A stretch of DNA of 32,844 nt from Tannerella sp. (GTDB lineage: Bacteria; Bacteroidota; Bacteroidia; Bacteroidales; Tannerellaceae): NCBI GenBank assembly GCA_031255595.1, contig JAIRSF010000060.1, forward strand, positions 1 through 32,844. The letters are read 5' to 3'. The notes below the pieces were generated by a model. That model had not been told where the DNA came from and searched no databases. It worked only from the letters and a program-made list of their open reading frames with translations. Positions 29,070 through 32,844 of this stretch are shown here, in pieces (position 1 is the stretch's first letter; each line of letters starts with the position of its first letter). Position numbers and translations under genes: made by a program.

Positions 29070-29168
29070 CCCCCGATTTGAAACAAAATCAAAACATTTT
29101 CACCCCCGATTTGAAACAAATTATCCAAGCATAAACCCCCGATTTGAAACAAAAAACACTATCTTTGC
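29070..29168 (+). repeat. Tandem iteron-like array 1: three 33-bp units with identical 18-bp core CCCCCGATTTGAAACAAA
   Basis: Core at 29070-29087, 29103-29120 and 29136-29153; exact 33-bp period; unit 3 spacer ends in TATCTTTGC; directly upstream of the ATPase gene at 29184. Confidence 0.95.
29160..29167 (+). promoter_or_regulatory. -7 box TATCTTTG at the end of array-1 unit 3
   Basis: TAnnTTTG match 17 nt before ATG 29184; the repeat core occupies the place of the -33 element. Confidence 0.65.
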
Positions 29169-29183
29169 AAAAAACAAGTGCGT

Positions 29184-30536
29184 ATGTTTAAAAGAAATAT
29201 TCTTACGGAATTGAGACAATGGGCTGCGACGAAAAATCGCAAACCGCTAATACTGAGAGGATCTCGCCAAGTAGGCAAAACTACGCTTGTAGATAGTTTT
29301 GCGCCGTATTTTGATAGTTATCTTTATTTGAATCTTGAAAAAAGCCCAAGCGCAATCGCCCTGTTTGAAAAAGAACAGGAGATGAGTCATCTTTTGGCAG
29401 AAATTTTTCTTTTTTGCAACAAGGAAAATAAGCCGGGAAAAACGCTTTTATTTATTGATGAAATTCAATATTCAAAAACGGCAATCACAAAACTTCGTTA
29501 CTTTTACGAAGCAAAGCTATCTGATTTATACATCATTGCCGCTGGTTCATTATTGGAAACTGTGTTGAATAAAAACATTTCGTTCCCTGTCGGACGAGTA
29601 GAATATTTAGCTGTTCATCCCTGCGTATTCAACGAATTCTTACGGGCTATCGACGAAACACAACTTGAAAAAGCATTATTTGATTGCCGGATACCCGAAG
29701 CTTTGCATACCAAAACAATGAATCTTTTCAATACGTTCACACTCATTGGCGGTATGCCCGAAGTGGTTGCCGATTATGCTGAAAACAAAAACTATGTCGG
29801 TTTGAACCGTATTTATGAAAGTTTACTTACAAGTTATCGTAATGATGTTGAAAAATATGCCCGAAACGAAACAATGAATCAAACGATTCGTTATATTTTG
29901 CAGTACGGTTGGAAGTTTACGGCAGAACGCATAACATTGGGCGGGTTTGCCGGTTCTTCTTATAAGTCGCGTGAAATGGGAGAAGCATTTCGCACATTGG
30001 AAAAGACGTTCACTCTGGAACTTTGCTATCCGACAACCGATTGCGTTGTGCCGATAACGAAAGATCTGAAACGTTCTCCAAAATTATTCTGGCTTGATTG
30101 CGGTTTGGTTAATTATGCTGCAAATGTGCAAAAGGAAGTGTTCGGAGCATCCGATATTCTGGATGCATGGAGAGGAAAAATTGCCGAACAAATTGTTGCT
30201 CAGGAATTACTCGCAATAGATAGCCGCGTCTCAAATCAGCGGAATTTTTGGGTGCGAAATAAAAAAGATTCGGATGCAGAAGTCGATTTTGTTTTACAAT
30301 ACGATGGCAAAGTGATTCCGGTAGAGGTAAAATCGGGACATAACACAAAACTTCGCTCTTTGCATTTATTTATGGACGAAGCGCCTCATAATATAGCTGT
30401 AAGAGTCTGGTCGCAGCCTTTTTCAATAAATGAAGTGACAACACTCGGAGGTAAGAAATTCAAACTAATCAACTTGCCATTTTATTATGTTGGAAGACTT
30501 GAAACTATATTGAAAAATGCATTGCCGGCTCGTTAA
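29184..30536 (+). CDS. P-loop ATPase, AAA_14 + DUF4143 type with PD-(D/E)xK-like C-terminal motif (ATPase 1)
   Basis: Walker A RGSRQVGKTTLV, Walker B TLLFIDEIQ, AAGSLLE sensor, GGMPEVVADY, C-terminal DAEVDFVLQYDGKVIPVEVKSG; ATG 29184 preferred over GTG 29178. Confidence 0.9.
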   Translation: MFKRNILTELRQWAATKNRKPLILRGSRQVGKTTLVDSFAPYFDSYLYLNLEKSPSAIALFEKEQEMSHLLAEIFLFCNKENKPGKTLLFIDEIQYSKTAITKLRYFYEAKLSDLYIIAAGSLLETVLNKNISFPVGRVEYLAVHPCVFNEFLRAIDETQLEKALFDCRIPEALHTKTMNLFNTFTLIGGMPEVVADYAENKNYVGLNRIYESLLTSYRNDVEKYARNETMNQTIRYILQYGWKFTAERITLGGFAGSSYKSREMGEAFRTLEKTFTLELCYPTTDCVVPITKDLKRSPKLFWLDCGLVNYAANVQKEVFGASDILDAWRGKIAEQIVAQELLAIDSRVSNQRNFWVRNKKDSDAEVDFVLQYDGKVIPVEVKSGHNTKLRSLHLFMDEAPHNIAVRVWSQPFSINEVTTLGGKKFKLINLPFYYVGRLETILKNALPAR

Positions 30537-30794: not shown

Positions 30795-30890
30795 CACAAA
30801 AAGTCGTTCCACTTTTTGTATATTTGCACAAAAAGTCGTTCCACTTTTTGTGTATTGACACAGAAAGTCGTTCGAATAAATGTATACTCT
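30795..30890 (+). repeat. Tandem iteron-like array 2: three 32-bp units abutting the ATPase 2 start codon
   Basis: Units: CACAAAAAGTCGTTCCACTTTTTGT-ATATTTG (30795), CACAAAAAGTCGTTCCACTTTTTGT-GTATTGA (30827), CACAGAAAGTCGTTCGAATAAATGT-ATACTCT (30859); core has 9-bp inverted arms ACAAAAAGT/ACTTTTTGT. Confidence 0.95.
30819..30826 (+). promoter_or_regulatory. -7 box TATATTTG at the end of array-2 unit 1
   Basis: TAnnTTTG followed by C; if used, units 2 and 3 fall mostly in the 5' UTR. Confidence 0.55.
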
Positions 30891-32195
30891 ATGGAAAGAT
30901 TTGCTTATAAAGACTTGCTCGAATGGAAGAATAAGGCGAAAAGAAAACCTTTGATTGTCCGAGGCGCACGTCAGGTTGGAAAAACGTGGCTGATAAAAGA
31001 ATTTGGAAAAAAAGAATATAAACAATTGGCTTATATAAACTTTGAAACCTCGGTGAAATTAAGTACGCTTTTTATGCAGGACTTTGATCTGAACCGCATA
31101 TTAACAGCAATAAAACTCGAAACCGGGATTCAGGTTGTCGCAGACAATACCTTAATTGTATTTGATGAAATTCAGGAAGTGGAACGCGGACTTACCGCCT
31201 TGAAGTATTTCTATGAAAATGCGCCTGAGTATCACGTGATCGCAGCCGGCTCCTTATTGGGAGTGGCACTTCATCACGCTACCTCTTTCCCGGTGGGGAA
31301 AGTAAGTTTTCTGGATATTTATCCGCTTGATTTTTCCGAATTTCTGCTTGCAAAAGGACAAAAATCATTACTCGATTTATTGGAAAGCCTTGACTGGACA
31401 CTGATAAAAACGTTCAAACACAGATATATCGAACTCCTGAAACAATACTATTATGTAGGCGGTATGCCGGAAGTCGTATTGTCGTTCGTTGAAAATAACG
31501 ACTATGATGAAGTCCGCGTACTTCAACATGAAATTTTAACGTCCTACGAACAGGATTTTTCCAAACATGCACCTTTCGACATGGTTCCGAGAATACGAAT
31601 GTTGTGGAATTCCATACCGGCTCAATTAGCAAAAGAAAACAAAAAATTCCTGTACGGCCTCATTAAAAAAGGCGCCAGAGCGCGGGAGTACGAATTAGCC
31701 TTATCCTGGCTAATTGACAGCGGACTCATCTACAAAACGGATCGCATCTCTAAACCCGGTATCCCTTTAAAAAGTTATGCCGACAGCAGCGCATTCAAAT
31801 TATATCTCGTTGACGTAGGATTGCTCGGCGCCTTAGGCGAAATAGATGCAGGAACATTGCTTGACGGAAATAAAATTTTTGAAGAATTTAAAGGCGCATT
31901 GACCGAACAATATGTCCTCCAACAACTTATAAAAAAACATACACAATCTGTTTTTTACTGGTCTGCCGAAGGAGGAAAAGCCGAAGTAGATTTTATTCTT
32001 CAATATACCGGCAAAGTGATACCCATCGAAGTAAAAGCGGAAGAAAACCTCCAATCCAAAAGTCTAAAGTCATATATCCGGAAATACGCCCCCGAAACAG
32101 CGATCCGCACCTCCATGTCCGACTTCCGAAAAGAAGAACAATTGACGAATATCCCCTTATATGCCGTCTTGTTAGTTAACGTTGTTAGTGAATAG
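30891..32195 (+). CDS. P-loop ATPase, AAA_14 + DUF4143 type with PD-(D/E)xK-like C-terminal motif (ATPase 2, paralogue of ATPase 1)
   Basis: Walker A RGARQVGKTWLI, Walker B TLIVFDEIQ, AAGSLLG, GGMPEVVLSF, C-terminal KAEVDFILQYTGKVIPIEVKAE; ATG 30891 preferred because the listed 30816 start translates the repeats. Confidence 0.9.
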   Translation: MERFAYKDLLEWKNKAKRKPLIVRGARQVGKTWLIKEFGKKEYKQLAYINFETSVKLSTLFMQDFDLNRILTAIKLETGIQVVADNTLIVFDEIQEVERGLTALKYFYENAPEYHVIAAGSLLGVALHHATSFPVGKVSFLDIYPLDFSEFLLAKGQKSLLDLLESLDWTLIKTFKHRYIELLKQYYYVGGMPEVVLSFVENNDYDEVRVLQHEILTSYEQDFSKHAPFDMVPRIRMLWNSIPAQLAKENKKFLYGLIKKGARAREYELALSWLIDSGLIYKTDRISKPGIPLKSYADSSAFKLYLVDVGLLGALGEIDAGTLLDGNKIFEEFKGALTEQYVLQQLIKKHTQSVFYWSAEGGKAEVDFILQYTGKVIPIEVKAEENLQSKSLKSYIRKYAPETAIRTSMSDFRKEEQLTNIPLYAVLLVNVVSE

Positions 32196-32356: not shown

Positions 32357-32844
32357 ATGAGATACTTTAACATAGCAGGGCCTTGCAACAGCATAAAGCA
32401 TTACATGATAGAGGCCACCACGCGCCTGCAAGGTGTGGAACAGTTGATTGATGAGGAACAGTATTTTGTGATTCACGCCGCACGCCAGAGCGGAAAAACA
32501 ACTTACCTGAAAGATCTGGCGGACAGGCTGAACGCCGGCGGAACATATTATGCCCTGTACTATTCGATGGAAAAAGCTCAAAACGTTATTGACCCGAAAG
32601 AAGGCATACCGGCGATCGTGCGGAATATGAAAAACAAACTCAAAGGTACAAATATTCCATACGGTGCGGAATTTGCTAAAAATGCGGATTATGAAGATTT
32701 TATAGGCGTTCTGGGAACTGCGCTTTCACAATTTTGTGAACTGTTGGACAAACCGTTGGTAATCCTTTTCGACGAAGCCGACTGCCTGAGCGAAGGAACA
32801 TTAATCTCTTTTCTCCGGCAACTGCGCGACGGTTACAACAGCCG
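32357..32844 (+). CDS. P-loop ATPase/AAA-like ATP-binding protein, different family from ATPases 1-2 (3' truncated by window)
   Basis: MRYFNIAGPCNSIKHYMIEATTRLQGVEQLIDEEQYFVIHAARQSGKTTYLKDLADRL...; Walker A ARQSGKTT, Walker B LVILFDEAD; open to window end. Confidence 0.85.
   Translation, partial: MRYFNIAGPCNSIKHYMIEATTRLQGVEQLIDEEQYFVIHAARQSGKTTYLKDLADRLNAGGTYYALYYSMEKAQNVIDPKEGIPAIVRNMKNKLKGTNIPYGAEFAKNADYEDFIGVLGTALSQFCELLDKPLVILFDEADCLSEGTLISFLRQLRDGYNS

What the first reader, a model, noticed from the sequence alone, without database searches (positions are those of the whole stretch)
29070..29168. Array 1: exact 33-bp periodic iterons upstream of ATPase 1
Three identical 18-mers CCCCCGATTTGAAACAAA start at 29070, 29103 and 29136, with unrelated 15-nt spacers (ATCAAAACATTTTCA, TTATCCAAGCATAAA, AAACACTATCTTTGC). 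Identical cores with divergent spacers suggest selection on the core and its phasing rather than recent slippage. Sites on one DNA face fit cooperative protein binding.
Basis: partly seen in the sequence, partly recalled or inferred. Interest (0 to 1): 0.7.

Follow-up and report, generated by a model that had tools for sequence, protein, structure and literature searches.

The report
Defence-candidate ATPases with self-addressed DNA repeats
The three spaced repeats sit in the promoter of a gene for a candidate anti-phage ATPase-nuclease, and its relatives in Bacteroidales and several other phyla carry arrays at the same 32-33 bp spacing whose letters change in step with the protein's predicted DNA-reading parts, which suggests that each protein recognises, and probably controls, its own gene through a private DNA address.

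Summary
Confirmed and far more general than reported. CCCCCGATTTGAAACAAA occurs exactly at 29070, 29103 and 29136 and nowhere else in the genome (2 mismatches allowed). The downstream gene (29184-30536) is an AAA_14+DUF4143 ATPase, PADLOC family PDC-S01, an unvalidated but very common defence candidate. Arrays with 32-33 bp pitch precede nearly all orthologues in Bacteroidales and some in Pseudomonadota and Chlamydiota plasmids; PF09820 ATPase genes and neighbouring genes lack them. In 99 orthologous arrays 168 of 192 unit spacings are exactly 33 bp. Cores differ between paralogues, are near-identical within an array, and drift with the protein; spacers are random. In three clades covariation points to the same two protein regions: a predicted winged-helix recognition helix (residues ~252-263) with the core's 3' half, and a nuclease-domain loop (~353-366) with its 5' half. 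In one clade arrays are flipped relative to the gene with the pitch kept, so these are double-stranded DNA sites. Best explanation: each ATPase-nuclease binds its own promoter iterons cooperatively and autoregulates. Self-binding is strongly supported by sequence; sign of regulation, role of ATP and immune function are inferred. No report of these arrays was found.

The parts
29070..29087 (+). iteron 1 of array 1 (CCCCCGATTTGAAACAAA)
29103..29120 (+). iteron 2 of array 1
   Evidence: spacing 33
29136..29153 (+). iteron 3 of array 1; covers the expected -33 region of the promoter
   Evidence: in the modal class of relatives the -7 box starts 24-26 bp after the start of the last unit
29160..29167 (+). 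predicted Bacteroidota -7 promoter box TATCTTTG
   Evidence: consensus match; positional enrichment in orthologues
29184..30536 (+). ATPase 1: AAA_14 + DUF4143 (winged helix + PD-(D/E)XK), PDC-S01 family
29937..30005 (+). codons 252-274: turn and recognition helix of the predicted winged helix; covaries with the 3' half of the iteron core
30249..30281 (+). codons 356-366: nuclease-domain hairpin loop; covaries with the 5' half of the iteron core
30795..30890 (+). array 2: three 32-bp units, different core (CACAAAAAGTCGTTCCACTTTTTGT...); -7-like box TATATTTG at 30819-30826
30891..32195 (+). ATPase 2: AAA_14 + DUF4143, PDC-S01 family, about 31% identical to ATPase 1

Best explanation
Array 1 is an autogenous operator. 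The ATPase-nuclease encoded just downstream binds each 18-20 bp core. Its winged-helix recognition helix reads the 3' half and a loop of its PD-(D/E)XK domain reads the 5' half. The 33-bp pitch lets neighbouring protomers or oligomers assemble side by side on the promoter. Bound protein covers the -33 region and so most likely represses its own gene, holding a potentially dangerous ATPase-nuclease at low level; an infection signal or ATP turnover would release it. Each paralogue has its own core, so several copies in one cell do not cross-regulate. Shown by sequence: the arrays, their pitch, gene-specific cores, core-protein covariation, family-wide occurrence and orientation flips. Inferred: direct binding, cooperativity, repression, ATP control and an immune role.
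For: Direct repeats at a lag of 32-33 bp or twice that in 74 of 87 DUF4143 genes of relatives, against 6 of 99 control genes, all six being the same arrays seen from a divergent neighbour. In 79 orthologues from GTDB genomes the best lag was 33 in 60, 32 in 3 and 65-67 in 10. Unit spacings: 33 in 168, 32 in 18, 34 in 4, 31 in 2. Within-array identity is 0.75-0.95 over the core and 0.32-0.35 in the spacer; core distance grows with protein distance (Mantel r 0.25, none of 2000 permutations) while spacer distance stays at 0.55-0.62. Strongest protein-core mutual information: S262, G253 and L252 with core positions 13-14 (Z 8.6-11) and K361, N359 and D364 with positions 4-8 (Z 6-9). The same two regions rank first or second of about 417 windows in two further clades; both ranks together were reached in 0 of 300 free shuffles in each. 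AF2 model (pLDDT 93) puts the first region at a winged-helix recognition helix (262-274) and the second in a loop between nuclease strands. Arrays keep the pitch when flipped relative to the gene and occur with plasmid-borne relatives in other phyla. PF09820 AAA-ATPases in the same genomes have none.
Against: No binding or expression data exist. With tight cluster-preserving shuffles (50% distance) the covariation ranks are less decisive: 25 of 300 in clade 2 and 4 of 300 in clade 3. In the discovery clade the highest single Z was exceeded under the tightest shuffle, and its two regions were chosen after the fact. Array position relative to the -7 box varies, and some arrays run into the start codon, so steric repression may not be universal. 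One DUF4143 clade has a palindrome at the start codon instead. A few orthologues show no array.
Confidence: 0.72

Rival explanations
1. The ATPase binds its own iterons but as an activator, like the STAND-type activator MalT on its arrays of boxes: oligomerisation on the array after a signal switches the gene on (positive feedback).
For: The fold resembles STAND/NB-ARC ATPases with a winged helix, and MalT is a Foldseek hit. In the modal class the last core ends just upstream of the -7 box, a place where an activator could also sit. Multiple upstream sites are typical of activators.
Against: In a number of orthologues cores overlap the start codon or lie downstream of the -7 box, where activation is unlikely. 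Orientation flips with no change of pitch fit occlusion more easily.
Confidence: 0.15
2. The array is the site of action, not only a regulator: a DNA scaffold on which the AAA+ nuclease is stored, or nicks or remodels DNA (recombination, replication or a self-cleaving alarm), like ORC/Cdc6 boxes or Rep iterons.
For: The nuclease domain itself seems to read half of each core, and the PD-(D/E)XK motif is conserved. ORC/Cdc6-DNA complexes are among the structural matches.
Against: Cores lie only at the 5' side of the gene, at the promoter; no 3' copies were found. Regulation explains the location more simply.
Confidence: 0.08
3. A separate host regulator binds the array.
For: Three to four tandem sites in a promoter are typical of ordinary operators; RptR controls an E. 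coli defence island through three direct repeats (PMC12255303).
Against: Each paralogue has its own core even within one genome, the core drifts with the ATPase, specific ATPase residues covary with it, and arrays occur with relatives in other phyla.
Confidence: 0.04
4. Slippage-generated tandem repeat, CRISPR-like array or structured RNA leader without a protein partner.
For: Equal spacing and identical repeats look superficially similar.
Against: Spacers are unrelated. No Rfam match above threshold. Arrays flip strand between subclades and mostly lie upstream of the -7 box. Shuffles never reach the score.
Confidence: 0.01

Closest known systems
PDC-S01 (PADLOC phage-defence candidate, single gene; AAA_14 + DUF4143)
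   Same: Both window ATPases match its models over nearly full length (E 2e-180 and 2e-188). The family is described as an ATPase fused to a PD-(D/E)XK domain and as the fourth most common defence across prokaryotes (PMC12988326).
   Different: No promoter array or autoregulation was mentioned in the passages read; antiviral function is unvalidated.
RptR operator of an E. coli defence island (PMC12255303)
   Same: [quoted passage not shown] full repression needs at least two sites.
   Different: RptR is a separate small regulator with a single conserved 9-bp repeat (TTTAGCTAA). Here the likely binder is the ATPase-nuclease itself, sites are 18-20 bp at 33-bp pitch, and each gene has its own sequence.
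Rep-iteron systems of plasmids
   Same: Winged-helix protein, direct repeats of about 20 bp beside its own gene, autoregulation (general knowledge).
   Different: Different protein family, no origin features sought or seen, chromosomal setting, sites separated by free spacers.
Archaeal ATPases PABY2304 (2qen) and SSO1545 (2fna); ORC1/Cdc6 (2qby)
   Same: Same AAA+ plus winged-helix arrangement over residues 1-314 (Z 15.4, 14.3, 10.8).
   Different: No operator arrays are known to me for the first two; ORC/Cdc6 binds origins.

Membership tests
PDC-S01 / AAA_14-DUF4143 ATPases | AAA_14 and DUF4143 domains above curated cut-offs | tested here: met
   86.5 and 71.3 bits for ATPase 1; 101.7 and 133.7 for ATPase 2
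PDC-S01 / AAA_14-DUF4143 ATPases | PADLOC PDC-S01 model match | tested here: met
PDC-S01 / AAA_14-DUF4143 ATPases | Walker A/B and PD-(D/E)XK catalytic residues | tested here: met
   G31, K32, D92, E93, D368 and K383 invariant; E366 and E381 at least 90% in 77 sequences
PDC-S01 / AAA_14-DUF4143 ATPases | anti-phage activity | not testable with these tools
   experimental validation pending for most such candidates according to PMC12988326
Autogenous iteron operator (works like) | repeated cores with free spacers at a conserved pitch in the gene's own promoter | tested here: met
Autogenous iteron operator (works like) | the gene product binds the repeats | tested here: inconclusive
   covariation at predicted DNA-reading residues in three clades; no binding assay
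Autogenous iteron operator (works like) | binding changes the gene's own transcription | not testable with these tools
   needs reporter assays
Plasmid Rep-iteron replication origin | replication initiator gene next to the iterons | tested here: not met
   gene is AAA_14-DUF4143; contig carries topoisomerase, lpxC and floA genes
RptR operator | TTTAGCTAA 9-bp repeats | tested here: not met
   core is CCCCCGATTTGAAACAAA
CRISPR array | repeats of 23 nt or more with longer unique spacers, cas genes nearby | tested here: not met
   18-bp repeats, 15-bp spacers in promoter position; repeats differ by gene; no cas gene recognised among the window proteins scanned

The most novel reading that the evidence does not exclude
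A widespread immune-type AAA+ ATPase-nuclease family uses a two-part, evolvable protein-DNA code, half read by its winged helix and half by its nuclease domain, to assemble at 33-bp pitch on its own promoter. The array acts as a built-in sensor or storage scaffold that couples the state of the nuclease to its own expression, and keeps up to a dozen paralogues in one cell orthogonal.
Probability: 0.35. Interest if true: 0.9.

Novelty: new variant of a known kind. Interest (0 to 1): 0.8.

Why it matters
PDC-S01 is reported as one of the most frequent defence candidates in prokaryotes, yet its function and control are unknown. A family-wide, gene-specific DNA address gives a direct handle: it predicts a ligand (the array DNA) for every member that has one, a binding assay that can be run at once, residues that set specificity, and a testable link between the ATPase-nuclease and its own expression. 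It also offers many natural protein-site pairs from which a recognition code for two coupled DNA-reading elements could be learned.

Tried and rejected
Rfam: only sub-threshold chance matches. NCBIfam: no model. PDB by sequence: none. Phage origin of the core: the 18-mer has no exact match in 2.9 million viral contigs. AAA-ATPase_like (PF09820) genes as a possible second carrier: no 33-bp arrays in 27 genes. DUF4143 genes of distant Bacteroidota classes (about 390-aa clade): no direct arrays, but an inverted repeat ending near the start codon in most (22 of 27 with score 9 or more against 20 of 99 controls); not pursued. In-core TAnnTTTG boxes as the reason for the repeats: present in a subset only (24 units), so promoter duplication does not explain the arrays. 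Literature: one paper in the library names DUF4143; three name PDC-S01. The two on defence landscapes were read only at the passages naming it, and none of those mentions repeats; bioRxiv is not held.

Full report
OBSERVATION. The sequence at 29070-29168 is as described: CCCCCGATTTGAAACAAA at 29070, 29103 and 29136. The window lies in a 2.73-Mb, 77% complete assembly of 288 contigs, and the 18-mer occurs nowhere else in it even with two mismatches. Lag-33 self-similarity of the 200 bp before the gene was never reached in 1000 dinucleotide shuffles. The third 'spacer' contains TATCTTTG (29160-29167), the Bacteroidota -7 box. The next gene has its own array, period 32, at 30795-30890 with a different core.

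THE GENES. Both genes encode AAA_14 + DUF4143 proteins that match PADLOC's PDC-S01 models over nearly their full length. A 2026 survey calls PDC-S01 the fourth most common defence across prokaryotes and describes it as an ATPase fused to a PD-(D/E)XK domain, with experimental validation still pending for most such candidates (PMC12988326). An AlphaFold2 model of ATPase 1 from 77 orthologues has mean pLDDT 93. It shows an AAA+ domain, a winged helix (helix 229-245, short helix 255-257, recognition helix 262-274, strands 278-281 and 300-303; domain assignment is mine) and a nuclease-type domain whose strands 354-357 and 366-373 are joined by a loop. Residues 1-314 match the archaeal ATPases PABY2304 and SSO1545 best (Z 15.4 and 14.3), then NLR/STAND proteins and, lower, ORC/Cdc6. 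Walker and PD-(D/E)XK residues are conserved.

THE ARRAY IS FAMILY-WIDE. Among 87 DUF4143 genes from Bacteroidales relatives, 78 have a direct repeat scoring at least 10 in the 200 bp before the start: lag 33 in 59, 32 in 6, 64-68 in 9. Of 99 other genes in the same loci, six score at lag 32-33; inspection shows that these are the ATPase arrays seen from divergent neighbours. An overlapping but mostly new set of 79 orthologues from GTDB genomes gives 33 in 60, 32 in 3 and 65-67 in 10. In 99 orthologous arrays with a common core model, units number up to 5 (mostly 3) and spacings are 33 (168), 32 (18), 34 (4) and 31 (2). AAA-ATPase_like (PF09820) genes of the same genomes show no such arrays. 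Relatives outside Bacteroidota also have arrays at this pitch or twice it: plasmids of Acinetobacter junii, Vibrio coralliilyticus, Criblamydia and Glaesserella; a human-gut phage contig carries a 58% identical orthologue with a 33-bp array. A Segatella copri plasmid orthologue shows none.

SELECTION ON THE CORE. Within arrays, pairwise identity is about 0.75-0.95 over the core and falls to 0.32-0.35 in the spacer. Core distance rises with protein distance (0.22 at under 25% protein distance, about 0.45 above 45%; Mantel r 0.25), whereas spacer distance is 0.55-0.62 throughout. In the close relative L164 all three copies share a 5' variant (TGCTCCCG) that differs from the window's, a concerted change with independent spacers. 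Paralogues in one genome carry different cores (for example L016 and L044, or L017 and L045).

WHO READS IT. Mutual information with average-product correction between protein columns and core positions (91 arrays, effective number 64) gave as strongest pairs S262, G253 and L252 with core positions 13-14, and K361, N359 and D364 with core positions 4-8. On the AF2 model these are the turn and start of the recognition helix and the nuclease-domain loop. Because these regions were picked after the fact, two other clades were tested with the core halves fixed in the script beforehand. In the ATPase-2 clade (72 genes, effective number 55) the best of about 417 twelve-residue windows (P0001 numbering) started at 351 for the 5' half and at 256 for the 3' half. 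In a third clade (31 genes) the best started at 361, with 360 tied, for the 5' half and at 254 for the 3' half. Both ranks together were reached in 0 of 300 free shuffles in each clade, in 1 of 300 when only broad clusters were preserved, and in 25 and 4 of 300 when tight clusters were preserved. The tight control also keeps real between-cluster signal, so it is conservative, but it shows that phylogeny is not fully excluded. A rough Fisher combination of four first-rank results, each taken as 1 in 35, gives p about 4e-4.

DNA, NOT RNA. In the ATPase-2 clade the cores point along the gene in 47 genes with two to four hits and against it in 13, with the same 32-33 bp pitch; 12 convergent pairs lie 24-25 bp apart. 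A flip with constant pitch is expected for protein sites on double-stranded DNA. No Rfam family matches.

MECHANISM. In the modal class the -7 box starts 24-26 bp after the start of the last unit (37 of 64 arrays that have such a box), so the last unit occupies the -33 region. I conclude that the ATPase most likely binds and represses its own promoter cooperatively. Direct self-binding is well supported by sequence; the sign of regulation, ATP control and an immune role are inference. Rivals are listed separately; self-activation is the strongest.

COMPARISON. It works like autogenous iteron operators and like RptR's direct-repeat operator (PMC12255303), but the presumed binder is the effector ATPase-nuclease itself, the sites are gene-specific, and the pitch is conserved across the family. 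No paper in the held library was found to describe these arrays.

Noticed in passing
window 30795-30890: Second array, three 32-bp units, each of the first two also a near-palindrome (AAAAAGT-CGTTCC-ACTTTTT), upstream of the second PDC-S01 ATPase.
   Followed up: yes
L104-L133: A different DUF4143 clade (about 390 aa, distant Bacteroidota classes) lacks direct arrays but mostly has an inverted repeat of about 31-43 bp at or just before the start codon (e.g. TATTTACAGATTCGGAATTGAATTCCGAATCTGTAAATA in L129); possibly the same self-binding in another geometry.
   Followed up: partly
L299, L301, L305, L308, L318 and similar: In one ATPase-2 subclade whole arrays are inverted relative to the gene while the 33-bp pitch is kept.
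   Followed up: partly
L212, L213, L223, L229, L230, L235-L238: In several orthologues (Sphingobacteria and others) the last core runs straight into the start codon, and the core contains a TAnnTTTG match; suggests leaderless transcripts or translation-level occlusion.
   Followed up: no
window 32357-32844: A third ATPase-like gene (AAA_22, weak AAA_14) follows the two PDC-S01 genes and is cut by the contig end; no array was seen before it.
   Followed up: no
L339 (Glaesserella parasuis plasmid): PDC-S01 relative with a repeat at a 66-bp lag lies directly before a type III restriction-modification locus.
   Followed up: no
L334 (MT835779.1, human gut phage contig): Orthologue of ATPase 1 at 58% identity with a three-unit 33-bp array nearly identical to that of Bacteroides xylanisolvens L177.
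   Followed up: no
L004, L013 (own genome): Two further DUF4143-type genes of the same genome have repeats at a 33-bp lag with unrelated palindromic cores.
   Followed up: partly
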